A DNA stretch of 64,000 bases, from NCBI GenBank assembly GCA_947179485.1, contig OX359249.1, forward strand, positions 1,426,001 through 1,490,000, given 5' to 3'. The stretch comes from Allacma fusca. Taxonomy: Eukaryota > Arthropoda > Collembola > Symphypleona > Sminthuridae. Of this stretch, positions 17,220 to 59,870 are shown in pieces (positions within the stretch are counted from its first letter, which is position 1; each line of letters begins with the position of its first letter). The notes under the pieces were generated by a model. It saw only the letters and a list, made by a program, of their open reading frames with translations. It made no database searches and was not told the DNA's origin. The position numbers and the translations under genes were made by a program.

Positions 17220-17977
17220 AAAAAGTTAACCACATGCATCTCAGTTTAAAATAACAGTTAGTCTGTATAGTTACCTTTTTGTGGAGTTTATATGTATGTC
17301 CTATATCATTTAAATACTATCTGCCAACACTAAGTTATTTTGATAGCACAGATAAATGACAAATACTAAGTTACCCTGCACTTGAGTAACTTCTCAACAA
17401 ATGGCGGCTTCTATTGTCATGCTAAACCGCCTAAATATTAACGGTCCATCATTTTAGGCATGGATGTGTTACTTAGATTAACCCATTCCGTACTTCCTTT
17501 GTTCCGGCATTCATGTTAACGAAAGCACTTTCCGGCTGGCATTAAAAACTGCAGGTGGAAAGTTATCCCGCTGTGCAAACTTAAATTAAATCTATAGTTT
17601 CCGGGTAACCGGAAGAAATCAAGTACATCCAAGTTTATTTACATTTAAGTCTGCATATGGACTGACCGCATTTTTTACAGTGTAGGTCTTCCAGCTGTGA
17701 ACAGTTCATTCGATTTTAATGTCATAGTAGCAAGCTATTTAAAACGCCAGGTATTTTTGTAGTAGCTATCTTAATGGCTTGTTTATGCAGCAAAATATGA
17801 GGTACAACTCGATTTGTTTTGGTTTAATGTAAAAATATATTTTGAATGTTTTGCATTTTAGTTTCTGAAACATCTCCATTTCTACCAAATTCGTGGTGGG
17901 TTTCCCGACGTAACCAACCCATGGACTATTGGGGAGATAGTATTCCAAGGTCTCGAAAGTGTGAATGTGGAATACAT

Positions 17978-18945
17978 GTATGTATGTATGTATGTATTGG
18001 CAGGGTCCGGAGGCGGTCATTTCTTTTCCTCCTCCGGAGGCGCTCAAGTCTAAAGACTTATTGCACTCTACCCCAAAGACATGTTTACTGTTGGCTCCTG
18101 GTAAAGCGCCCATATATATGTATAATGTGGTGTACATGTATAATGTTGCCCGGTCTTTTGCCTGAGCCTCTTGTATTATGTCAAATGTTGCTTTCCCTTC
18201 CCCCAGGTATACAAGTCGCTGATCGATGTACAGTGGGCACTCGCATATGAAGTGCTCCACTGTCTCATCCCCCAGTCCGCATTTGCAGCCCGGGACATCC
18301 TTGCAACCCATGGTGTAAAGGTCTTTGTTTAGTGGTGCCCGGCCCGTGTAGGTATACGTTAGCCACTGCATGCTTCTTCTTCTATCCTGTATCAAGTTGT
18401 CAGTTCCATACCTAGGCCCTGACAAGAATCTCTTTTCCGCTATTTGGGCCTTCCCCCAGTATACCTTATGTTGGTTCCTGAGTTCTTCCCTCACAACCTT
18501 TTTTATTGTGCTATCTGCTAGGGGTACAAAGGGTTCTGGTCCTACAGCATCCCTTCCAACACCCTCTATAGTATTCATTTTCGCTAGCTTATCCGCTTCT
18601 ACATTCCCTTTTATGCCCGCATGCCCCGGTACCCAGTTAAGGGTCACCCGGTTCACTTCGGCCAGTTCGTTCCACCTTTCGTGACACTCCAGGAGGATTC
18701 TGGAATTTATTTCCCCTCCCCCTAGAGATTTTATCATCTGTTGACCATCTGAGTACAGATGTACTTCCCTTCCTTCAGTCCCCACTATTTGCAGATACCA
18801 TGCGGCCACTATTGCTGCATAGCACTCGCTTTGAAACACTGGTGTTCGTCCCTAATGGTATCGAGTACTCCCACTTTGTTTCCCCTCCATCGTTTATAAT
18901 CCCGCCACACCCCGACGGTCCAGTCCCCTTGGCCCCGTCGGTATT
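17978..18945 (-). mobile_element. 5'-truncated LINE fragment encoding RNase H, inserted in a Neurexin-like exon
   Basis: A 12-bp target duplication TGTGGAATACAT (17966-17977 and 18946-18957) flanks the insert. The 3' end carries a (CATA)n tail next to 17978. The coding strand is minus: an RNase H domain starts at about 18945 (DGAKGTGPSGCGG), shifts frame near 18840, then continues with an SDGQ motif and GHAGIKGNVEADKLAK. A Cys/His-type C-terminal segment (CKCGLGDETVEHFICECP) follows. RNase H plus this tail is typical of I/R1/LOA-like non-LTR elements. It is dead: 5' truncated and frameshifted. Confidence 0.85.
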
Positions 18946-34921: not shown

Positions 34922-36205
34922 TTAGCCCCCAGATTGGTGAGACGTATTGGTATTTGGTAGTATTGTTGCGTTTAATAGATTAGCTGTGATATCCCAGGAA
35001 TCCATATGGGAGGAGTTTATTGCATTTATTAAAGCACTTGAGGCCGAATAAGGTTTAGATTTTACATGGGCGAAGTTTTTCGTAAACGTTCCAGAGGATT
35101 GAAAAACTATGCCTAGGTATGTGTACTCTTTTACCTTCGTTATCACCTTTCCTTCCCAATACCACTTAGTTCTCTTTGGTAAAATTCCCCTAGGGGAAAA
35201 GACCATAATATTCGTCTTAAGTAGATTAATTTCAAGTTCCATTTCAGCGCAGTGTTTTTGTAGTACGTCAATTTTTTCCTGTAAACTGATTTTACCATCA
35301 ACAATGATGAACGTGTCATCTACGAATAACAGTTGATTTATTCTTTCGTATCCCATGTTAATTGGAGGTGCTCCGTGGTCGTCCATATATTTATCCAGGT
35401 CACCTATGTATATAGAAAACAAAAGCGGGCTAAGGATTTCTCCCTGGAGTACTCCCATTGTTACTTGAATAGGGCTGGATTGACCTTCCACGCTTCCTAT
35501 AATGAAGCTCGTATTATCACACAGAGATTTAATGATTCTAATAATGCTTACACTAATTCCTAGCTTGTCCATTTTTCCCCAAAGGAGATGATGCTTGAAG
35601 GAATCAAATGCCCGCTTAAAATCTACGAAGTACAAAAAGCTTTGAGTTTCTTAATAGTCGTGACTGCACTAGAATTTAAGCAAAAAATCGTATCTGTACA
35701 CCCACGTTTTTGCCTAATGCCTGCTTGAAATTCTGGGATAACTCTTCTTCACACCAACTATAGAGCCTCTTGTACACTATTGTAGTAAATAACTTTGCAT
35801 TCGTATTGATCAGAGCAATCCCTCTGTAGTTAAATGGGTCTTCTGAATCTCTTTTCTTGGGAAGGCACTAATTCTATTTCTGACCATTTCATTGGAGTTT
35901 GCTACGACTTCCAAATTTCGTTGAACAGAAGTAGGATTTCATTTTGTAGGTTAGAGTGGCAGTTCCTTAGGAATTCCTTTGTCACTTTGTCGATCCCAGG
36001 AGCTGTTTGTTTTCAGTGTAGTAAGAGCTGCGTTTAGTTCTTTCAGGGAGATTGATTTGTTTAGGTTATAATCCACGTGATTAAATTCATGTAAAGACCA
36101 AGGCTTTTGGAAGGTATATGTTCTTTGTAGAAATTTGCCCACTTTTCCTCGTTTTCTAATTTTGGGGGTTGTCTGCCATTTCGAAATACGTTGATTGTTT
36201 TCCAA
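34922..36205 (-). pseudogene. LINE reverse transcriptase (broken)
   Basis: The main open piece, 35635-34922, carries motif A (YFVDFKRAFDSF), motif B (GVLQGEILSPLLFSIYI) and motif C (FVDDT). The thumb (KVITKVKEYTYLG) follows. The upstream piece 36205-35951 holds the N-terminal RT block (ISLKELNAALTTLKTNS). Pieces at 34871-34307 continue the C-terminus. Stops and frameshifts separate them. The clade is not certain from reading; I/Jockey-group relatives are plausible. Confidence 0.8.
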
Positions 36206-37214: not shown

Positions 37215-37219
37215 GTTTC
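37215..37219. repeat. Target-site duplication GTTTC of the Copia element (left)
   Basis: GTTTC here and at 44388-44392 flank the element exactly. Five bases is the usual duplication size for Copia integrases. Confidence 0.9.
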
Positions 37220-37737
37220 TGTTGAAATTATTAGTAAATCATTTAGGAATTAAGCAAATGGACTTGTAAGAATGATTTGAAATGAGAATGATTTTTTCAT
37301 GTATAAAGTATTTATCATGAAGTATGAAAAGAGGAACTGAAAGTGATGACTAAGGGATAACACACTTCAAGCAAGAGTTTCAAGAGGAGGAAACTTGACC
37401 GCGAGGATGCAACGCATTGGACTTTGCTGACACAGCAGATGACAGTTTTATGACGGTAATAAAACTCGGGACTGACTCAAGACTCAAGACCAGCTCAAGT
37501 ATATATAAGATTTGTGACACACAAATACATTGACGAAACCTCCTCTTGTTATTTGTACATTATTTAGATGCTAAATTAAACTTGATGTAAACTTGGACTA
37601 GATAATGTTATTTAAGCAGATGAACCTGTAACTTTGGATAATAATCGATAATAATCAATCAGAGAATAAAGTTAGAGATCTATTGTATTATTCAAGAGAA
37701 ATATAGTGAATACTGATTTATTCCATATTTCACAATA
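37220..37737 (+). repeat. Copia 5' LTR (518 bp)
   Basis: It starts TGTTGAAATTA and ends TTCACAATA. Compared with the 3' LTR it has 60 extra bases (between GAGGAAAC and GGTAATAAAAC, about 37393-37453) and about two substitutions. A TATATAAG box lies near 37502, and AATAAA near 37665 may serve polyadenylation. Confidence 0.95.
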
Positions 37738-37755
37738 CGTTATCAGCACTGGCTA
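37738..37755 (+). promoter_or_regulatory. Candidate primer-binding site
   Basis: CGTTATCAGCACTGGC follows the 5' LTR directly. TATCAG is common at this site in Copia elements primed by tRNA or half-tRNA; the tRNA was not identified. Confidence 0.5.
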
Positions 37756-38132
37756 AATTCACTGCAAAAGTGAAAAAGAAGATTTTTTCCGACGTGGAAA
37801 TTTCTACAGTGAATTTTAAGACTGCACAGAGGTGTTCTTCAAAATTTTAAAGAGTGAAACTTAAGAGTGATAGTTTTTTTACGAGAGATTTCATTTTTTT
37901 GTTGTTGACGTACAACAAAGTTTAAAAGTGATAACTTTCAGTGAGTAAAGTTCTGTATCAACTTACCCCGAGTGAAATAGTGCAAAACTATTTTACTAAC
38001 AACTCTAAATCCCGACGACGGATTTAGCTGGAAATTTCTGTGACAACAGAAGAGTGTGTGTACTTCATACAGAGTGACCAAAAACTCCGCTAAGGAATTT
38101 TTATTCAAAAGTTTTTCCAGTTGACAGTCACG

Positions 38133-40184
38133 ATGTCTACAACTACAAACAACCATTATGTCACCCGGAGGTTTGACACAGCGTCAATTACGAAGCTCAA
38201 CGGGGACAATTACCGGATTTGGAAAACAAGGTTAGTAAGTGTTTTTACGGCTCACAAAATCATGGATGTCGTGGATGGATCCTTGACCAGACCATCTACA
38301 TCTGGAGACAGCCAGGACAAGTGGGACCAAGCCAACTCGGAGGCTTTAACAAGTATGTATCTTTCTATGTCTGATGCTGAGGTAGATAGAGTTTCGGGGT
38401 GCAAAACCTCAAACGAAGTATGGATTAAACTAAGAACAATGTATGAAAGCACATCCGGAGAGAGCAAGCAAGCTCTTCTCCAGAAATTCTTTAGCATAAA
38501 GGAAGGAGACTACAACTCTCCGGTCAAGACAATGGGCGAGTCCAGAACTTGGCTGCCCAGCTAAACTCCATAGGATCAAAGATGGACGACGATTCCATTG
38601 TGGCTCGCGTAATCTCTAGCCTCATGGCAGAGAAATTCAGGAATTTCAGAGAAGCCTGGAGATCTGTAGATGTCAGTAAGCAAACTACTGCACTTCTACT
38701 ATCAAGACTGAAGACCTGGGAACTCGAGGATCAAGAGTCAGGAAGTCTTGCGAAAAACAGTGAAAGTGGAAAAGCTTTCTCAGCACAGAAGCAAAATGGG
38801 AAGAAACCCAAATTGACCAAAGAGGAAATTGCTGAATTGAAGAAAAAGACAAAATGCCATATTTGCGCAAAGCAAGGGCATTGGGCTCGGGAATGTTCAG
38901 AAAAGAAAAAAAAGAACGAGTCTAAGCAGACAACAACCACAAGTCAACTCAAATCTGGTGGAACTGCCTATGCAGCTGGAGACCACACGGTTGATTGGGT
39001 TAATGACTGTGGAGCTGATGCACATTACTGTGGAAGATTAGAATGGTTCTCGGAATATGAAAAATATTCGGAACCACAGCAAATTGGACTGGCGAACGGA
39101 TCATTCATGCAGGCCCTTGGAATAGGAAAGGTGAAGGTCCTTGCTCTCAAACGAGGCAATTGGGAAACCATCGAGATTGGAAATGTTCTATACATCCCTG
39201 GAGCAGCAAACTTACTTTCAGAAAATGTCCTCTTGAAAAAGGGATACAGAATAGAGAAAGAAGGAACAGAAGATTTTATTTTCTTCAAGGATGGAGTACC
39301 GGACATTCAAGCCTACATGAAGAATGGACTTCAGATTATGAGGTTCAGACCTATAATTAACAATGCATTTGCTTGCAAAAAGCAAGTTAACTGGCACTCA
39401 AGATTGGGACACATCAACTACAGTTTTTTGAAGAAAACTAAGGACAAAGGAGCAGTATATGGTCTCGAAGACATGAAAATTGATGACTCACCATGTTCAA
39501 TATGCAAGATAGGAAAAGCGGTAAAACAGTCCTACCCAGAAGTCGCAAAGACTGGGATAGTTAAGACTGGTGAAGTTTTACATGTAGATTTGATATATGG
39601 ACTCACACCATCAAATAGCGCTAGCAAATACTGTCTATTAGTCAAAGACGAAGAATCGTCTTTTAGACATGGATATTTTCAAAGGACAAAGGATGAGACC
39701 GCTGAAAACATCAAAGAAGTGGTTAACTTCATGAGTAACCAGACTGGAAATACAGTCAAGATTTTCCGTTCAGATAATGGAACCGAGTTTGTGAATCAAA
39801 CTGAAGCAATTCTTTTCAGAGAAAGGAATTCTACATGGGCTCAACGCCCCGCACACCCCTCAAGCAAATGGATTTATTGAGCGTGATGTACGCACAATCC
39901 AAGACGCAGCACGCACTATGCTTACGCAAAGTAAGTTAGGTGACAAATTTTGGGAAGATGCAGTTGGAGTAGCATGCTATATGCTCAACAGGACTCTCAA
40001 TTCCCATAATACTGAGATCACACCCTGGGAAAAGGTGTTCAAGAAGAAGCCATCCTTAAGACATGTACGGACGTTTGGTTGTACTGCATACGCCAAAATC
40101 ATGCATGGGCATCAGTAGTGGAACGACGCAGCCCTGGAGACAATTCTGGTAGGATACAATTCCCTCAACAAGAAATTACAAACT
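38133..40184 (+). pseudogene. Copia gag, protease, integrase (frameshifted)
   Basis: The first frame (ATG 38133; an upstream in-frame ATG also lies at 38121) encodes the Copia-type capsid region (TKLNGDNYRIWK). It shifts near 38535, continues with a CCHC knuckle (CHICAKQGHWAREC, 38855-38896), a protease site with DCGAD in place of the usual DSGA (about 39005), the GAG-pre-integrase block (WHSRLGHINYSF, CSIC), and integrase (HVDLIYG, RSDNGTEF). A second shift occurs near 39835; the next frame has the integrase Glu region (PQANGFIERDVR). A TAG stops it at 40116-40118, after which the same frame resumes. In normal Copia elements this is one continuous polyprotein that forms virus-like particles, processes itself and integrates cDNA. 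Confidence 0.9.
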
Positions 40185-42200
40185 GTGGGTACCAGTCACA
40201 ACAAATACATAGAGCAGGTAAAGCACGTAACTTTTGATGAAGACACCCTGGGTATCATTGATAATAACTCTATGAGTATTATTCCTGAGGATGAGGTTAC
40301 CGTACATGAGCAAGTCATTTGTCCCGCCAGACAAATTGACACATTGCCCAGGAGCATATTGAAGAAATCAAGTCCTCCTGTACAAAGTAAGGCAAACTTA
40401 CCTAGTACGAGCACAAGCAAGGCAAATACCCCGGAACAGGTATTTTTAAGTCCTACCTCAAGCCGTGATAATTCCCCCGAAAGGGATTTATTCACACCAA
40501 CTAACTCAGACGATGAGGGTTCTACACCCAGGAAACGGTTTGTGTCATGGCCTGACACAGAACCAGAGATGTTTGAGAAGTCAGATGAAGAAATGGAACA
40601 GGATCCAGTTCCAGAACCAACGGTACGACGTTCAGGGAGAGTAACTACCCAGACGAACAAGTATCAAGCAGGGTTTCTCGCTGAGCAAATCAGTGAACCT
40701 AAGAGCTACAAAGAAGCAATTCATTCCAAATTCAAGAACGAATGGAAAGAAGCGATGGACGATGAAGTCTGTAGTCTTGCAGAGCAAGAAACGTGGGCTC
40801 TTGTAAAAAGAACTCCACAGCAAAGACTCATAAAGAATATGTGGGTCTATAAACTGAAGAACGGCCCTGACGGACCAAGATTTAAAGCAAGACTTGTTGC
40901 GAAAGGTTACAGTCAAAAGGAAGGGATTGACTTTCAAGAAACATTTGCTCCAGTCAGCAGATATGAGACCGTCAGGATTCTACTCTCCATCGCAGCTGCT
41001 CGGAATATACACATCATGCAATTTGATGTAGCAACCGCATTCCTGAACAGTCCATTAGATGAAGATATATATATGGAGCAGCCCGAAGGTTACAATGCAG
41101 AACCTGGAATGGTATGCAAACTATTGAAAGGCCTTTACGGATTGAAACAAGCTCCTAGGAACTGGAATAAAACTTTACAGGAAAAGTTATCCAGCATGGG
41201 ATTCTACCCTATGGACAGCGACCCTTGCTTATTTAAGAAGGATCATGACGGACATCCTATATATATGACTATATATGTAGATGACGGACTTGTTATAGGA
41301 CAGTCCAAAGAAGAATTGGAGGCTATAATTGCTGACTTGAAGGACAGCTTTAAGCTCACCATTCAACCCCTGAAGAAATTTCTTGGTATAGAAATTATCA
41401 GGAATGAGGACGGAATTTTTATTCACCAGGAATCATATGTTCAAGAGCTTTTGAGAAGATTTGGCATGGAACAGTGCAAAACTGTTGAGATTCCGATGGA
41501 CCAAGGTCTACAGTTGGCCGCAGTAAGTCCATCAGACACTGCCTACAATTTTCAGGAACTCATTGGTGCTCTGCTATACCTAGCAAGATGCACGAGACCG
41601 GACATCACATATGCTGTTCACTACCTCGCGAGATTTTTTGCAGGATACGGGAGAGAACACTATGAAGCTGGAAAGAAAATTCTGAGATACCTCAAAGGGA
41701 CGCAAAGTCTCGGTATATTTTATTGGCAATCAGAAGATGATATCATTCAAGCTTATGTTGACGCAGATTATGGTTCAGACAAGAACTCTAGGAAGTCCAC
41801 ACCAGGAAACTTATTCACCTTCAATGGGAGTCCAGTTTCGTGGCTGAGCAAACGACAGACATGTATATCACTGTCCTCAACGGAAAGTGAATATGTGTCG
41901 TTAGCTCAAGGAGGAAAGGATGCTGTATGGATACGGAAGATTTACGAAGACTTCGGAGTAGCAAACACTCCTATTTCTATTCTCACGGATAGCCAAAGTG
42001 CTATGAAGTTAGCGAACAACCCGGAGTTCCATGAAAAATCCAAACACATTGACATCCGACACCATTTTATCAGAGACTTGGTAGAGACAAAGCAAGTTGC
42101 TCTAAAGCATTTGCCGGATATTGTCCAACCAGCTGACATTCTAACCAAGGCGGTTGGAAGAGTCAATTTCTTGAAGAAAAGATCAATTATGGGAATGCAA
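40185..42200 (+). CDS. Copia reverse transcriptase and RNase H
   Basis: An uninterrupted frame holds RT: WVYKLKNGPDGPRFKARLVAKGY, FDVATAFLNSPLDEDIYMEQPEGY and the catalytic YVDD at about 41274-41285. RNase H follows with YVDADYGSDKNSRKSTPG, SLSSTESEYVSL and DSQSA..KHIDIRHHFIRD. These are diagnostic Ty1/Copia motifs and all key residues are present. The frame does not stop after RNase H but runs straight into the envelope-like region. Upstream breaks mean this copy cannot make the whole polyprotein. Confidence 0.95.
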
Positions 42201-43859
42201 CTTCCACCCGAAGCAAAAGAAGAACCTGTAAAGCGCAGAGCTTTATGCAGTATAATAGTGGATCCAAAAAGGCCAAAATTGTTTTGGACCTTATCACTCT
42301 TCTTGTCATTACTGACACTCGGAGGAGCAAGTAATGGAAGCCCACTACTTTGGAGGAAAACGTATGACCCAGCTGTAATTGGCTTCAAAGCTTTTACAAT
42401 GAAGATAAACCTAATTTCGCCGTGCACATTCCTACCTATTGAATGTACGGACGTAAATATGGCGGAAGCACTGAGGAAACAGTGTGAAGAAACCTACGAT
42501 GAACTTTTCTCTAGGAACATTGAAAGGATTTGTCCCAGCGAGAAAACTCTCCACAAAAGAGGGAAGAGATTGATATTTATTGCAGGTTTCATAATTGTGG
42601 CGGTACTGGCTAGCGCAGGTTTGGGCATAGGAACCTTTGCTCTGACAAAAACTTACCAACTGGAGACCCGTCAATCAGAGCTACTGGCAGCTCTAGATGA
42701 ATTAAAACGAGATGTCTTTGCAGCTAACAAAAGGATGAAGACATTTCAAATGGAGATACGCAAAGTAACCTCCTGATTGGATACATTAGAGGCAGATCTA
42801 ATGTCTTTTAAACAGAAAGTAATCGAGCTTCAGTATGTAATTTCCTACCTCACAGGACGACTGTTAGAGGGTAAAAGAATTTTACAACTTACGGAGAGAA
42901 CCTGGAGGAAAAAGGAATTGTCCACTGAGTTGTTCAATTACCTTAACATCACATTACCGTGTGGAGAAGACTGCTTTGCAGAATATGGAACTTTTCAAAG
43001 TTGTGTGATGGATGAAAACAAAAAGGCAATAACATTGGACTTCACCATTCCAATCGTTAATAGGAGCCTTATCAGAGTCAAAGCCGATCCATTTGACATT
43101 ATGACGAAAAGGAATAATGTTACATGCAGACTGAAGTATAACGGTCCTATTTTAGCGACCATATCAGCAGAGGAAGATTGTGTCTACAATACACAATTCC
43201 AGGAGGAAATGAGACAATTGTCACTAGACGTGTCATTAAATTGTACGAACAGTTCTATTTTTGAAGACGGAACTTACTACAAAACTGAGAGATGCAAAAT
43301 CTCCAGAGACGAAGATGAGAAGGAGTTTATCCAAGTTAAACTCTTCAACAACCTATATTATATATACTGTCCAGGAAGCAGTTATGTAATTGGAAGGAGA
43401 AGTATTTTGTGTCCACTCCATGTGTTCACACTACCCTTATCGGCGACATTCACATTGAATGGAATAGAGTATAAAGGATCGATTCTAAAGGTCAATTACC
43501 GAGAAAAAGAAGATCCGTTGTTAATTGAGCAGATCAATTACCATCTCAATCCGAACATCAATTGGAAAAATCTCACAGCCGAGATTGATGAAGATTGGAA
43601 AAACAGCGAACTTGAGATTGAAAGAGAAGTGCATAACTTGTCTGTATTTCAATACTCCAATAGTTCATGGACAACGGCAGAAGTTTTACTGATTATCAGT
43701 GCATGCATATGTGGAAGCATTGCATTTTTGATTGCAGCTAGAAAATGCATCAAAAAGTTCAAGTCGCAAAGACAAGGACGAAATGCAACAGCAGAAGGAG
43801 AAAAGAAGGAGGAATCCATTCCACTTCAAGAAATCGTAGAAAATAATTTTTACAATTGA
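42201..43859 (+). CDS. Envelope-like glycoprotein region of the Copia element (one in-frame TGA)
   Basis: The region continues in frame from RNase H. A hydrophobic signal-peptide-like segment (about 42270-42333, WTLSLFLSLLTLGG) precedes a short cysteine-containing ectodomain. A basic site KRGKR (42555-42569) is followed at once by a hydrophobic, glycine/alanine-rich segment like a fusion peptide. A heptad-rich coiled coil (about 42660-42860) holds a TGA at 42774-42776; the frame stays open after it. Eight N-x-S/T sequons and many cysteines follow, then a single hydrophobic anchor (about 43680-43743) and a 35-40-residue basic/acidic tail. This is the layout of class-I-like fusion glycoproteins such as errantivirus or baculovirus F-type envelopes. 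No sequence homology search was possible. A spliced or proteolytically released product would be needed. This copy is broken at the TGA. Confidence 0.8.
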
Positions 43860-43921
43860 AAGATTCGTAATAATTTTCTGTATATGTACATACATTGAAT
43901 AGTAATATTAGAAAATTGATT

Positions 43922-43929
43922 AAGGAGGA
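43922..43929 (+). promoter_or_regulatory. Copia polypurine tract
   Basis: AAGGAGGA directly precedes the 3' LTR, as needed to prime plus-strand DNA synthesis. Confidence 0.85.
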
Positions 43930-44387
43930 TGTTGAAATTATTAGTAAATCATTTAGGAATTAAGCAAATGGACTTGTAAGAATGATTTGAAATGAGAATG
44001 ATTTTGTCATGTATAAAGTATTTATCATGAAGTATGAAAAGAGGAACTGAAAGTGATGACTAAGGGATAACACACTTCAAGCAAGAGTTTCAAGAGGAGG
44101 AAACGGTAATAAAACTCGGGACTGACTCAAGACTCAAGACCAGCTCAAGTATATATAAGATTTGTGACACACAAATACATTGACGAAACTTCCTCTTGTT
44201 ATTTGTACATTATTTAGATGCTAAATTAAACTTGATGTAAACTTGGACTAGATAATGTTATTTAAGCAGATGAACCTGTAACTTTGGATAATAATCGATA
44301 ATAATCAATCAGAGAATAAAGTTAGAGATCTATTGTATTATTCAAGAGAAATATAGTGAATACTGATTTATTCCATATTTCACAATA
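43930..44387 (+). repeat. Copia 3' LTR (458 bp)
   Basis: Same start and end as the 5' LTR but lacking 60 bp. The rest is nearly identical (for example TTTTTTCATG against TTTTGTCATG and GAAACCTCCT against GAAACTTCCT). Confidence 0.95.
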
Positions 44388-44661
44388 GTTTCTAAGCCAT
44401 CCGATTCGTAGGTTTCTTTCCCTTTCCGGAATCCCTTAATTAGAAACCGATTACCATAGATGTGTGCTTTTTTCTCAGGATGTTTTGAATTTTATTCTTT
44501 CCTTCGTTCCACCAAGTTGCTTATTATTTGATTGAGGTCGCCGTTTATCCAGACTGTTTGTTCCGCCAGTATTTTTCAGTTGCTCCTTACCTTGTTGGCT
44601 TCTGAGAGGTTCTTGAATTTGCACTTGATTATGGACTTTCTTGCTGTCTCATCTGACCTAG

Positions 44662-47464: not shown

Positions 47465-49182
47465 GTTTCCGACTGGCGATGATCCAATTGGCGGTGACTG
47501 CAAGTAAAGCTGATAATTTGAAAAATGCCTTTCTGAAAATTAAGGAAGCAGCAAATGCCGGAGCACAAATTGTGGCATTACCGGAATGTTTCAATTCTCC
47601 CTACGGCGTTGGTAAAGAACTTAATTATCATAGTTATAAATGTAAAATAAAACATGTGTTAAAACAAGATTTCTATCTTTGCAGCTAGAATTCAAATAGA
47701 AATCAAGGTTTAAAAAACTTTAAAATGTACATAAATATTTTTGTGCATTGGATTTACAAAAATTTCTGACCTCTTCGCAATATTTTAGATTTTCCAACTT
47801 CTGAAAATTACATGTAGAAAAATCACCCGGCATCTATCTACCCAACCCACCCAGGAAACTTTTGCTTTTGAAACCTAACCTAACTAAAAATAAAAAACTA
47901 TATATAGGAAGAGATTTACTCAGCGTAAAAGTCGTTAACACGTAAACTTGTGATCAAAGCTTGCGTCAGTAGTGCCATTAGTATTAGTGAACGTGGCGTA
48001 TGAGCTTCTGTATCTCCGAAACTACATGCGAGAGCACCACAATTATTTTAGATGCGTGATCTCCATACTTAATTTACACTTCACAATTAAGTTTCATGAA
48101 AATCTTTGAAGGGCTAGTAAACTGTACTTATGTCTCCATTCTTCATAATCAACTAATTTATTTTTTAGGTTGGAGACACTAACTGCATAATGTATCGATA
48201 ACAATTTTATATTCATAAGAACTGTTTGCACTTAGATTATTTCCCGGAGTATGCCGAACCTGTTCCAAATGGGGAAACGTCAAGAAGACTATCTGAGTGG
48301 TCCAGGGAGAACAAGGTATATTTGGTAGGGGGTTCTATTCCAGAATCTGGGGAAAATGGCAAGTTGTATAATACATGCACAATTTGGAGCCCAAACGGAG
48401 ATTTGCTGGGGAGTCACAGAAAAGTTCACTTGTTCGATATTGATATTCCGGGAAAGATTTCGTTTCAAGAGTCGAAAGTGCTATCTAGCGGCCAACATCT
48501 TACAACTTTTGACACTGAGTTTTGCAGAATTGGAGTGGGAATTTGTTACGATTTACGATTTGCGGAAATGGCACAACTTTATCGCGAAAAAGGGTGTCAG
48601 CTTTTGATCTACCCTGGGGCTTTTAATATGACTACCGGGCCCGCTCATTGGAAGCTACTGCAGCAAGCTAGAGCAATTGATAACCAGGTTTTTAATTTCT
48701 GGATAATATTTCTATGCAAATATGAAACCAGTTGTTTTGTGTTTTATGATGTATGATTGCATGTGTATGTATATATTTATACAAAAATAGTATGTTACAT
48801 ATTTATTTCACAATTGTTTTAGCTCTATGTAGCTTCAGTCTCACCAGCTAGAGTTGAACAAGCACCTTATGTCGCCTGGGGTCATTCCTTAGCCGTAAAT
48901 CCTTGGGGTAAAATTATTACGGAAGCTGAAGAAACTGAAACTATAGTCTATGCAGATATTGGTGCGTTTTTAAATTAGAGCAATAAAACAAAGCCGTTCA
49001 TTCGAAATCTGGTAATTTCTTTCTTAAACAAATAGTAACCAACTTAATAATTTTCCATTTTAGATTTGAAGTACCTGCAAGAAATCCGAGAGCAGATCCC
49101 ACTGACAAAGCAGAGGCGCCGTGACATGTACGAAATCAAGGAACCTATTATAACTGCAGCAGCTCCCTCAGTTGTTATTTGA
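47465..49182 (+). CDS. NIT2: Omega-amidase NIT2 (nitrilase family), four visible coding exons
   Basis: Exons are 47465-47611, 48236-48687, 48823-48961 and 49064-49182. All introns are GT-AG and phases agree, giving about 284 residues to TGA, against about 276 in animal NIT2. Nitrilase-fold triad residues are visible: Glu in ALPECFNSP, Lys in [10 protein letters not shown], Cys in [19 protein letters not shown] and [13 protein letters not shown] are further family signatures. NIT2 hydrolyses alpha-ketoglutaramate and alpha-ketosuccinamate in cytosol/mitochondria, clearing omega-amides made by glutamine/asparagine transaminases. The first visible exon begins in phase so that A|GT TTC would give Ser-Phe, as in other NIT2 starts, implying a tiny upstream first coding exon not located. 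An in-frame ATG at 47416 reads straight in and is the alternative. No disabling change. Confidence 0.95.
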
Positions 49183-57212: not shown

Positions 57213-58231
57213 CTAATTGTAAAATTCACTATTATTCAGAATTAAATTTAAAGCATGCATTTTCCCGTGTTTACTTAGAATAATCAATCTTTGGTGTTTT
57301 CGAAGATTCCTGCCAGACTTAACCGTACTTTTGTCATTCTCCACTGGTTGCACTCTATCCGTAAGTGAAGGAGTTTGCAAGAGACTTTCATTAGGTACAT
57401 CAATACGCTTTTCCTGCCTAGATTTCCAAACATTGGACCTATCATCAGATTTATCCTGAAGGTATGGTCGGAAATCATAAACATGATGAGTACCATAAGG
57501 TTCACCAGTGGGCTCATGAACTAATTTAAAAGTTAAACCTGTGACAACCTCTTCTACTAAACTGAATGGACCAAACCATTTTTTACTGAGCTTTTTAATT
57601 TTCTCTTCCGCATTTGACAATATATGAGTTCTTAGTAAAACTTTGTCTCCTACTTTGAACTTACATGGCTTTCGTTTTTATCGTAACGCTGTTTTTGGGA
57701 GAGATAGGAGTTATGCATATTTTTTAATACCCAATCACGCTAATTCTGCAGGCAGCCACTGAGCTACGTCTGACGCTTGCAGAGACTTTCTTTCTCTTGG
57801 TTGCAACGATCTGTCTATGGGCAATTGAATGTGTCTACCCAACATCAGAACATCTGAACTACAACCTAAGGAATCCCTAATCATTGTTCGAACGGTCAAA
57901 GCGAATTTTTGTAAGTGTCTATCCCAGTCTGATTGCCTTTTGCCACAGAAAGCTGTGATCATGGTCTTAAGATCTTTGTTACTGCGCTCAACTTGATTTG
58001 ACTGAGGGTGATAATATGCTACTTTCCTATGAGAAACACCCCAACGGTCGCATAATTTAGCAAATACTTTCCCTTCAAAATAAGTAGCATGATCTGTAAT
58101 AATCTTTGAGGGGAAACCAAACCTGCAAAAAACCTGGTCTTCTAATAATTCAATTATAGTAGGTGCATTGCAATTCCTAATAGGAAAAATCTCTAACCAT
58201 TTTGTAAATTCGTCCTGGACGACAAGGATAT
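57213..58231 (-). pseudogene. Gypsy integrase core and C-terminal part
   Basis: Reads VVQDEFTKWLEIFP (first Asp), ITDHATYF (second Asp, where SD-x-G is usual), and HPQSNQVERSNKDLK (Glu). After a frame break near 57700 follows the C-terminal KKWFGPFSLVEEVV, the GPY/F-type module, and a proline/arginine-containing tail. The core is cut from its N-terminal part by the MITE at 58232-58564. Confidence 0.85.
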
Positions 58232-58564
58232 CGTCGCTGAAGAGGCAAAATGGAATACATGCATTTTGGATTAAAATCAAAATGGTCTACATGCAGTTTT
58301 ACTAAATGCAAAATGGAATAGATGCATCAAGTTTTAAAAGCAAAATGGAATAAGTGCAATTTCGTCTAAAAGCAAAATGGTCTACATACATTATGAAAGT
58401 ATACACGCATGTAGACCATTTTGCTTTTAGTGAAAACTGCATGTAGTTCATTTTGCTTTCAGGAAAGCTTGCAACTATTCCGTTTTGCCTTTAAGGAAAA
58501 AGGCATGTAGACCATTTTGCTTCTATTCGAAATTGCACTTAGTCCATTTTGCCTCTTCAGCGAC
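58232..58564. mobile_element. MITE inserted in the Gypsy integrase gene
   Basis: Inverted ends GTCGCTGAAGAGGCAAAATGGA are flanked by GATAT (58227-58231 and 58565-58569). Removing the element and one copy restores the integrase frame at the first catalytic region, so the duplication is about five bases. The interior alternates GCAAAATGGAATA.ATGCA and CATGTAGACCATTTTGC words. No family assigned. Confidence 0.8.
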
Positions 58565-59870
58565 GATATACTCACACTGTCTTTTGGTCCTCGGAAGCTT
58601 ACCCTGAATATCTATAAAAATAGAATCCTGAGCCTCAGCAATATTTAGTTTATGTCCCATCAGACCTTGTGGGGTCTGGTTTGAGCACTTAATTACTTGA
58701 CATACTTCACAGGTCTCGACGAAGTATTTTATATCGGCTGTCATGCCCTTCCACCAAAATCGTTTCATTACCATGTTTCTAGTCTTCTTGAATCCTAAAT
58801 GCGCGCTTTCTGGGACATCATGGAACGATGAAATAATTTCGGACTGCATCCGTTTTGGAACAACTGGAACCAACATGGACATCTGAACCAGATTTTCCAT
58901 ATTTTTGCTGGCAATCGCAGAGCGTTTATTTCTCCTCATTGAACAGTCACGGACCGTCAATGTGTTGATAGACTTTAATTCTTCAACTTGTTTTAACTTT
59001 GTGGCAGTTAATATTTTATGAATTTCTGCCGATTCTAAGCGCTTGTCACGCTTAAGTGTTTCCCGAAACATTGTACACATTGAGAAGTGCTCTTCACACT
59101 TCGTAAGTGTAGAGCAGTACAGAGCTGCTTTAACTTTATTTTTACAGTACAGAGCTGTGTTAAGGGTATGCCCTTCGCATGTTCTCCCTGCAGATTTGTT
59201 TACAGAGTATTCCTTTCGCTGTTTTATAATTGCATTCTCAAGTCTTTGCAATCTTTCTTGTAACAAATTCATTGATTGACTAATGTTACAAAGTAATTCA
59301 TCGCTTCTAGATGCATCAAATAGTTCCTGTCGATCTTTCCGTTGATGCTTCCTAACGTCAAACATATTATATTTCGGAACTCTCCGACAAAGTAATCCTT
59401 CTTCCAACTGAAATACGTTACTTGGATCACTACTGGCAGTTTCTAAAGATTTTATGATGTTTGCTAACTCTCCATCTTCAAGCTGAGCTTCCTTTAGTCT
59501 CTCTTGAGTCACATCAGAAAATAAATAATTAATGTAAGGAATATGTTCACCTTCGGCGATATCATCCAAGATTTGATCAGGCTCTGATGAATCCTTTGGT
59601 GCCCTACTCAATGCATCCGCTAAAATATTATCCTTTCCTTTAATGTGAATAAGAACATAACTGTACTCTTCAAGTTCTATGCTCCAGCGTTCTACTTTAG
59701 CTTTTTTACTTGGATTTCGTTTCATCCATGTAACTGCCATATTATCCGTTTGAACTATAATATGATGACGTACTATCAAAACATGGAATTTTCTTAATGC
59801 CCAGACTATAGCAAAACATTCTTTCTCGTACACTACTAATTTTCAGCGTGACCCTAACCATTAAATCTGT
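58565..59870 (-). pseudogene. Gypsy RNase H and integrase zinc domain
   Basis: Opens with VYEKECFAIVWALRKFHVLI and QTDNMAVTWM, then HIKGKDNILADALSRAP, the typical Ty3/Gypsy RNase H and its end. A long linker follows, then integrase FHDVPESAH (H-x7-H) and CEVC. The frame ends at the MITE. RT, protease and normal gag upstream are missing: only about 290 bp separate this frame from the PBS. Confidence 0.85.

What the first reader, a model, noticed from the sequence alone, without database searches (positions are those of the whole stretch)
37220..44387. Ty1/Copia retrotransposon carrying a complete envelope-like glycoprotein region
Diagnostic Copia RT/RNase H is followed in the same frame by a signal-peptide-like segment, a KRGKR cleavage site (42555-42569), an adjoining fusion-peptide-like hydrophobic run, a coiled coil, eight downstream sequons, a C-terminal anchor and a cytoplasmic tail, then PPT and LTR. 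Envelope genes are well known in animal Gypsy (errantivirus) and some BEL elements. In Copia they are mainly reported as env-like ORFs of plant Sireviruses. An animal Copia with a furin-type class-I-like envelope would be an independent route from retrotransposon to retrovirus. Young LTRs suggest the lineage was active recently.
Basis: partly seen in the sequence, partly recalled or inferred. Interest (0 to 1): 0.92.

Follow-up and report, generated by a model that had tools for sequence, protein, structure and literature searches.

The report
Springtail Copia element with envelope gene
A jumping gene of a type normally confined to the cell that made it carries, probably in soil springtails, a gene for a virus-style membrane-fusion protein, which suggests that this type too gave rise to virus-like elements.

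Summary
The element at 37220-44387 is real: a young LTR retrotransposon (2 substitutions in 458 aligned LTR bases, GTTTC on both sides) with Ty1/Copia coding order. After RNase H, in the same frame, comes an envelope-like region: furin-type site, hydrophobic run, coiled coil, anchor, tail. "Complete" is wrong for this copy: one in-frame stop splits it, and gag and integrase are frameshifted. It is not a one-off: two of three protein searches gave 24 homologues. Seven join pol to this region; five run uninterrupted from the F2-like part to the tail. The five that bear an organism name are springtails of two orders. All 13 evaluable homologues keep a dibasic site before the hydrophobic run. Family profiles put pneumovirus/paramyxovirus-type F proteins among their best PDB hits, at site, hydrophobic run and coil, but not significantly (best E 0.04). 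Structure prediction was off and no other DNA copy could be fetched, so fold and dN/dS are untested. Best reading: a springtail-associated animal Copia lineage that captured a class-I-like fusion glycoprotein and kept it. The papers I could see give env-like genes in Pseudoviridae only to plant Sireviruses; one key survey was not held.

The parts
37215..37219 (.). target-site duplication, left copy (GTTTC)
   Evidence: matches 44388-44392
37220..37737 (+). 5' LTR, 518 bp
37738..37749 (+). putative primer-binding site directly after the 5' LTR; looks complementary to an internal (anticodon-arm) tRNA segment, tRNA-Ile by recall
   Evidence: sequence; tRNA identity recalled, no tRNA in window
38121..38564 (+). 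gag, first part (Retrotran_gag_2 7.7e-16)
38549..39880 (+). gag zinc knuckle, Pol_BBD, GAG-pre-integrase and start of integrase core (rve 2.1e-6), in another frame
39804..42200 (+). rest of integrase, reverse transcriptase (RVT_2 5.9e-64) and RNase H
   Evidence: RNase H by alignment to P0012 and P0013
42279..42332 (+). signal-peptide-like hydrophobic stretch at the start of the envelope region, same frame as RNase H
   Evidence: below threshold here, above it in five homologues
42336..42569 (+). F2-like segment ending in the KRGKR cleavage site (42555-42569)
42570..42650 (+). fusion-peptide-like hydrophobic run with the conserved ASAGxG core
42651..42773 (+). heptad-repeat A, first part, by alignment to homologues
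42774..42776 (+). in-frame stop codon that interrupts the envelope region of this copy
42777..43859 (+). rest of the F1-like ectodomain with conserved cysteines, anchor (about 43665-43751), basic tail and stop
43922..43929 (+). polypurine tract directly before the 3' LTR
43930..44387 (+). 3' LTR, 458 bp (lacks 60 bp present in the 5' LTR)
44388..44392 (.). target-site duplication, right copy (GTTTC)

Best explanation
This is a recently inserted, now defective copy of an animal (most likely springtail) Ty1/Copia retroelement whose lineage carries an envelope gene. After RNase H the same reading frame continues into a glycoprotein built like a class I viral fusion protein: short F2-like part, furin-type site, fusion peptide, heptad repeat A, cysteine-rich domain, anchor and basic tail. 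Shown: the element, the coding order, the conserved features, and the presence of the same pol-env joint in several other elements. Inferred: the glycoprotein was captured once, before the two env clades split, from an unidentified virus; host furin cuts it; it coats particles made by the Copia gag and fuses them with a target cell, most simply to move from soma to germ line or between hosts, as gypsy does in flies. How env is expressed (spliced RNA, or the end of a polyprotein with an internal signal) is open; I lean to a spliced RNA by analogy with gypsy elements.
For: Copia domains and order. 24 homologous proteins from the two searches that gave hits; none carries a virus name. 7 of 24 join pol sequence to the region: P0005, P0007, P0012, P0013, P0021, P0023, P0024; P0012 aligns from RT through RNase H to the tail over 862 residues, 39% identical, P0013 over 695 residues at 49%. 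5 of 24 run uninterrupted from the F2-like part to the tail: P0004, P0007, P0010, P0012, P0013. 13 of 13 evaluable homologues have [KR]R 13-16 residues before the core; 10 of 13 are exact R-X-[KR]-R. Coil: of the 23 rows of A3, 13 homologues have 60 residues there; no proline in any, 3.5-residue periodicity at p<0.05 in 12 of 13. Anchor in 17 of 22 homologues examined; the other 5 end before it. Profile A4 gives 41 PDB sequences at E up to 3, 12 of them named as fusion glycoprotein F, best E 0.040, matched at site, fusion peptide and coil. The env tree puts window with P0005 (92/91) in a 7-row clade with P0013 (96/92) inside a 10-row clade (96/100); in RT/RNase H the window is likewise nearest to P0005 (60.0%) and P0013 (59.6%).
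Against: No Pfam model explains the region and no PDB match is significant: three non-F proteins score above the F proteins, coiled coils are mixed in, the F entries are related to each other and so not independent, and no shuffled-profile control was run. No fold could be computed. No dN/dS. Protein databases list open frames only, so intactness of homologues is partly a selection effect. P0012 is not placed by pol: 47% identical both to window and to P0023, 55% to the short P0024. The N part of env does not separate the clades well: window is 42.6% identical to P0013 and 41.8% to P0012. The env tree has 11 of 21 inner branches open and its bootstrap had not settled. Three of the seven pol-env joints (P0005, P0023, P0024) are gene models that skip sequence. 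This copy is defective in gag, integrase and env.
Confidence: 0.78

Rival explanations
1. The region is a conserved membrane glycoprotein of the element but not a fusogen; like the debated env-like ORFs of plant Sireviruses it does something else (for example targeting to membranes).
For: Motifs such as anchors, sequons, RXXR and coils are not specific to envelopes, a caution given in PMC5408684 (passages). No significant similarity to a solved fusion protein.
Against: Site and hydrophobic core come in the class I order with nearly fixed spacing in 13 of 13 evaluable homologues, followed by a coil with heptad periodicity in 12 of 13 segments, and the profile matches F proteins over just this stretch (not significant).
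Confidence: 0.13
2. One-off chimera: a single copy picked up a passing gene, which then drifts neutrally.
For: This copy is interrupted.
Against: 24 homologues, 7 of them with pol joined to the region, at 28-50% env identity.
Confidence: 0.02
3. A captured or host-domesticated springtail gene rather than a viral one; some hits would then be host genes.
For: P0014 of Folsomia candida lies on a 3.5-Mb contig and carries no pol in its gene model; no viral donor was found.
Against: Deep sequence diversity, pol attached in 7 of 24, and a cleavage/fusion-peptide layout that host proteins rarely have (inference).
Confidence: 0.05
4. A gypsy errantivirus env moved into Copia by recombination.
For: Same layout as the F-type envelopes described for errantiviruses in PMC12992720 (passages).
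Against: No gypsy-env or baculovirus-F model among all 25 families that matched the 8 members of A1, nor among the 25 shown of 59 for the 23 members of A3.
Confidence: 0.05

Closest known systems
Plant Sireviruses (Pseudoviridae; SIRE1 type)
   Same: Ty1/Copia pol with a further coding region after gag-pol read as a putative envelope (PMC8515867 whole text; PMC3599292 passages).
   Different: Sireviruses are plant-specific by those papers; here the named homologues are all animals. Here furin-type site, fusion-peptide core and coil are conserved; sequence relation to Sirevirus env was not tested.
Gypsy errantiviruses / insect endogenous retroviruses with F-type envelope
   Same: LTR element of arthropods with a furin-site envelope after pol; probable way of working (PMC12992720 passages).
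   Different: Gypsy pol, baculovirus-F-like env as a third ORF made from a spliced RNA; here Copia pol, env in frame with RNase H, no Pfam env match.
Bdelloid rotifer TelKA elements
   Same: LTR element with a class I F protein most similar to those of paramyxoviruses (PMC5408684 abstract and passages).
   Different: TelKA belongs to that paper's rotifer retrovirus-like lineages, not Copia; the F similarity is clear there, only suggestive here.
Anakin (mosquito Pao element with chuvirus glycoprotein)
   Same: An arthropod LTR element that captured an RNA-virus glycoprotein (PMC10084718 passages; PMC12440569 passages).
   Different: Pao pol and chuvirus glycoprotein; PMC10084718 states that it found no clear evidence of such capture for Gypsy and Copia.
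Drosophila copia and GalEa-type animal Copia elements
   Same: Copia pol in animals; a short internal tRNA primer is what defines hemiviruses (PMC8515867), to which Drosophila copia belongs (recalled).
   Different: The main text of PMC3587641 holds none of the terms envelope, env gene, env-like, third ORF; I know of no env region in these elements (recalled).

Membership tests
Ty1/Copia (Pseudoviridae) | RVT_2-type reverse transcriptase | tested here: met
   PF07727 5.9e-64
Ty1/Copia (Pseudoviridae) | integrase upstream of reverse transcriptase | tested here: met
   gag_pre-integrs and rve within 38549-39880, RVT_2 within 40185-42248
Ty1/Copia (Pseudoviridae) | LTRs, PPT, short target duplication | tested here: met
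Ty1/Copia (Pseudoviridae) | tRNA primer-binding site | tested here: inconclusive
   sequence directly after the LTR; tRNA identity recalled only
Ty1/Copia (Pseudoviridae) | place in a Copia RT tree | not tested
   no reference Copia RT sequences were at hand (RT scan of viral contigs gave none)
Sirevirus | env-like coding region after pol | tested here: met
Sirevirus | plant host | tested here: not met
   5 of 5 homologues with an organism name are Collembola; the window's own host is inferred
Errantivirus | Ty3/gypsy pol order (RT before integrase) | tested here: not met
Errantivirus | envelope homologous to baculovirus F | tested here: inconclusive
   no such Pfam match, nor among the 25 of 59 families shown; no profile-profile test made
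Class I viral fusion glycoprotein | protease site directly before a hydrophobic fusion peptide | tested here: met
   13 of 13 evaluable homologues and the window
Class I viral fusion glycoprotein | heptad-repeat coil after the fusion peptide | tested here: met
   12 of 13 segments at p<0.05; P0014 fails at 0.0685
Class I viral fusion glycoprotein | C-terminal membrane anchor | tested here: met
   window peak 2.69; 17 of 22 homologues examined, the other 5 end before it
Class I viral fusion glycoprotein | N-terminal signal peptide | tested here: inconclusive
   hydropathy only: five homologues pass 1.5, window and P0013 do not
Class I viral fusion glycoprotein | trimeric class I fold, fusion activity | not testable with these tools
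   structure prediction off
Paramyxovirus/pneumovirus F | significant sequence similarity | tested here: inconclusive
   E 0.04-0.59 for 12 of 41 hits, not significant
Retrovirus-like infectious agent | extracellular infectious phase | not testable with these tools
   no experiment possible

The most novel reading that the evidence does not exclude
Springtails host an old, diverse lineage of enveloped animal Ty1/Copia elements, the first true retrovirus-like members of Pseudoviridae outside plants, made by a single capture of a mononegavirus-F-like fusion protein that was fused in frame to the end of pol and has since evolved together with it.
Probability: 0.5. Interest if true: 0.9.

Novelty: new variant of a known kind. 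Interest (0 to 1): 0.78.

Why it matters
[quoted passage not shown] An animal Copia lineage with a conserved class-I-like fusion glycoprotein would add an independent route from retrotransposon to retrovirus-like agent, beside those of gypsy, Pao and the rotifer lineages. It also gives a natural comparison for what an intracellular Copia capsid needs in order to become enveloped, and springtails can be kept and sequenced, so the question is testable.

Tried and rejected
Tried without result: region search of residues 690-863 of the 40185-42773 frame (3502 candidates, none at E up to 1); env scans of viral contigs (46 pattern matches, none confirmed) and genome contigs (32 matches, none confirmed); RT scan of viral contigs (7 matches, none confirmed); Pfam for the env pieces and homologues (weak matches only, the best being Tweety in 2 of 23 at 0.00033, DUF948 in 6 of 23 at 0.0013, FlaC_arch in 3 of 23 at 0.0013, Pre-PUA in 2 of 23 at 0.0017; TLV_coat in 1 of 23 at 0.038; 25 of 59 families were shown; wherever a curated cut-off was shown for an env match it was not reached); PDB by sequence with the C piece (9 matches, best 0.064), with profile A2 (4 matches, best 0.22), with P0004 (0 at E up to 10) and with the RT/RNase H part (0 at E up to 0.01); tRNA genes in the window (0).

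Considered and rejected: one-off chimera (homologues exist); a stop read-through as a regular device of the lineage (homologues that cover this place, for example P0005, P0012 and P0013, read an ordinary residue there); a gypsy element (coding order). The gene models P0005, P0018, P0023 and P0024 of Allacma skip sequence and I did not use them as evidence of splicing. P0018 reaches from the F2-like part to the tail but lacks an inner stretch, and P0014 starts just before the site; neither is in the count of five. In the feature script my regular expressions for the cleavage site and for RT/RNase H were poor (P0008 was wrongly flagged, several sites misread); I replaced the site count and the pol count. 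No control profile (shuffled columns) was run for the F hits. One search examined 22 of the 24 homologues (not P0019, P0024).

Literature: 10 searches listed, as far as titles and abstract starts show, no paper that reports an envelope in an animal Copia element; each listing had 10 to 30 rows and most listed papers were not opened. Only open-licence papers are held. [quoted passage not shown] I know it only from passages of PMC13172572 and PMC12859917, which describe gypsy elements. PMC11673190 (passages) has the word envelope once, in a figure legend. PMC5490193 and PMC6955108 (passages) mention no such element in springtails in the passages shown.
Full report
What is there. The stretch 37220-44387 is one LTR retrotransposon. 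Its LTRs are 37220-37737 (518 bp) and 43930-44387 (458 bp); over 458 aligned bases they differ at 2 positions, and the 3' copy lacks 60 bp that the 5' copy has (37393-37452). GTTTC stands on both outer sides. A purine tract AAGGAGGA lies directly before the 3' LTR. Pfam finds, in Copia order, Retrotran_gag_2 (7.7e-16), zinc knuckle (0.00054), Pol_BBD (4.5e-17), GAG-pre-integrase (1.1e-9), integrase core (2.1e-6) and RVT_2 (5.9e-64). The integrase lies before the reverse transcriptase, which separates Copia from gypsy, BEL and retroviruses (established knowledge).

The extra region. The frame that holds RT and RNase H runs on, without a stop after RNase H, into a region with a hydrophobic stretch (about 42279-42332), an F2-like part, KRGKR at 42555-42569, a hydrophobic run, a coil, a long cysteine-containing ectodomain, an anchor and a basic tail ending at 43859. 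One TGA at 42774-42776 interrupts this frame. Upstream the frame changes in gag near 38.55 kb and in integrase near 39.8-39.9 kb. So this copy is young but dead. The 360-codon run after the stop is far longer than chance: mean 78, maximum 177 in 2000 resamples.

Relatives. The C piece (42777-43856) found 6 proteins. A profile of five of them and the C piece found 21, of which 18 were new, in total 24 (P0001-P0024). A third search, with the N part of the region, found none. Five of the 24 carry an organism name: Allacma fusca (P0005, P0018, P0023, P0024) and Folsomia candida (P0014), springtails of the orders Symphypleona and Entomobryomorpha. The other 19 have none, and none of the 24 carries a virus name. 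By tblastn at E up to 1e-3 all 24 match the window inside this element only, in one frame; no other copy in the window was seen.

The joint with pol. Seven of 24 hold pol sequence and this region in one protein: P0005, P0007, P0012, P0013, P0021, P0023, P0024. P0012 (873 aa) matches the window over 862 residues, from RT through RNase H to the tail, at 39% identity; P0013 (722 aa) over 695 residues at 49%. P0007 and P0021 hold the end of RNase H followed directly by the region. Three of the seven (P0005, P0023, P0024) are gene models that skip sequence, so their exact joints prove little. The segment between RNase H and the hydrophobic stretch aligns between P0013 of one env clade and P0007, P0012, P0021 of the other, as expected from a single joining event.

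Conserved envelope features. Fourteen of 24 homologues cover the fusion-peptide-like core; P0008 starts at the site, which leaves 13. All 13 have [KR]R 13 to 16 residues before the core, 10 of 13 an exact R-X-[KR]-R, and the window copy has RGKR. After it, 13 homologues of A3 have a full 60-residue coil segment: none has a proline, 12 of 13 show 3.5-residue hydrophobic periodicity at p<0.05 by shuffling (P0014 fails at 0.0685), the best period is 3.52-3.56 in 10 of 13 (2.32 in P0014, P0016 and P0018), and the family mean gives p 0.011 over any period. An anchor peak is seen in 17 of 22 homologues examined; the other five (P0005, P0006, P0011, P0021, P0023) end before it. Five of 24 run uninterrupted from the F2-like part to the tail: P0004, P0007, P0010, P0012 and P0013. 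Protein databases list open frames only, so this is weaker evidence of selection than a dN/dS test.

Evolution. In a tree of the C part (24 rows, P0024 left out) the window groups with Allacma P0005 (92/91, not starred; P0005 fills 37% of the columns), in a 7-row clade with P0013 (96/92) inside a 10-row clade (96/100); 11 of 21 inner branches are open, the bootstrap had not settled, and P0006 has a very long branch. In RT/RNase H the window is nearest to P0005 (60.0% of 165) and P0013 (59.6% of 166), against 47-49% to P0012 and P0023; P0023 and P0024 share 86.2% of 80. In the N part of env window shares 49.3% with P0005 but nearly the same with P0013 (42.6%) and P0012 (41.8%), and 31.7% with P0023; P0012 is nearer to P0023 (51.8%). 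In pol P0012 stands between: 47.3% to window, 47.4% to P0023, 55.0% of 80 to P0024. Pol and env agree broadly, with P0012 unresolved. A single capture followed by joint descent is the simplest reading; I did not test it formally.

Link to known fusion proteins. Single sequences match nothing significant. Family profiles against PDB sequences give a weak but patterned result: with A3, 13 of 48 hits at E up to 10 are named fusion glycoprotein or hMPV fusion protein (best 0.068); with A4, 12 of 41 at E up to 3 (best 0.040), all over the stretch from the cleavage site through the fusion peptide into the coil. That all of these come from pneumo- and paramyxoviruses is partly recalled; two are named hMPV. 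I saw the residue alignments of two of them, where the basic site, hydrophobic run and coil fall in register. Three other hits rank above them: DotF and a GCN4-tropomyosin chimera on the coil, and EFCAB6 on the C-terminal part; many of the rest are coiled coils. With three more members the best F hit went from 0.068 to 0.040 while the top hit went from 0.012 to 0.016. I read this as suggestive of an F-like class I protein, not as proof; the F entries are not independent of each other and no shuffled-profile control was run.

How it probably works. Inferred: the LTR drives a full-length RNA; gag and pol make particles and cDNA as in other Copia elements; env is made from a spliced RNA or as the end of a polyprotein, enters the secretory path, is cut by furin at the RXKR site, and its fusion peptide and coil drive membrane fusion. 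Gypsy elements of flies, with such an envelope, pass from ovarian somatic cells to the germ line (PMC13172572, passages). The primer site after the 5' LTR (CGTTATCAGCAC) looks complementary to an internal tRNA segment (tRNA-Ile anticodon arm, by recall), which would fit the short-primer use of hemiviruses (PMC8515867); this was not tested.

What is new. The ICTV profile of Pseudoviridae (whole text) states no extracellular phase and names Sirevirus, restricted to plants, as the genus with a putative envelope; PMC3599292 (passages) says it is the only such genus. Ten paper searches listed no animal Copia with an envelope as far as titles and abstract starts show (calls in Tried and rejected), and PMC10084718 (passages) reports no clear capture of its glycoproteins by Copia. 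One key survey was not held. I therefore call it a new variant of a known kind: envelope capture by an LTR element is known, but not, in what I could read, in an animal Copia lineage.

Limits. The window's own host is not known to me; springtail is an inference from the named homologues. The genome could not be searched. Fold, dN/dS, RT placement and expression remain open.

Noticed in passing
37738-37749: The primer-binding site looks complementary to an internal tRNA-Ile segment (recalled), with a C opposite the wobble base, as if copied from an inosine; this would be half-tRNA priming.
   Followed up: partly
37393-37452: 60 bp of the 5' LTR are missing from the 3' LTR although the rest is nearly identical.
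   Followed up: no
57735-59833: Ty3/gypsy-type pol pieces on the - strand (integrase, RNase H, H2C2 domains).
   Followed up: partly
34922-35635 and 17766-18839: RVT_1 and RNase H frames on the - strand, probably LINE-type elements.
   Followed up: partly
48226-48756: Exon-like frame of a carbon-nitrogen hydrolase (nitrilase type) gene, probably a host gene.
   Followed up: partly
P0006: A very divergent homologue (28% identity, long branch) hints at a wider family than the two main clades.
   Followed up: no
42150-42332: RNase H and env share one open frame with no stop between them in this copy and in P0007, P0012, P0013 and P0021, unlike the separate env frame of gypsy elements.
   Followed up: partly
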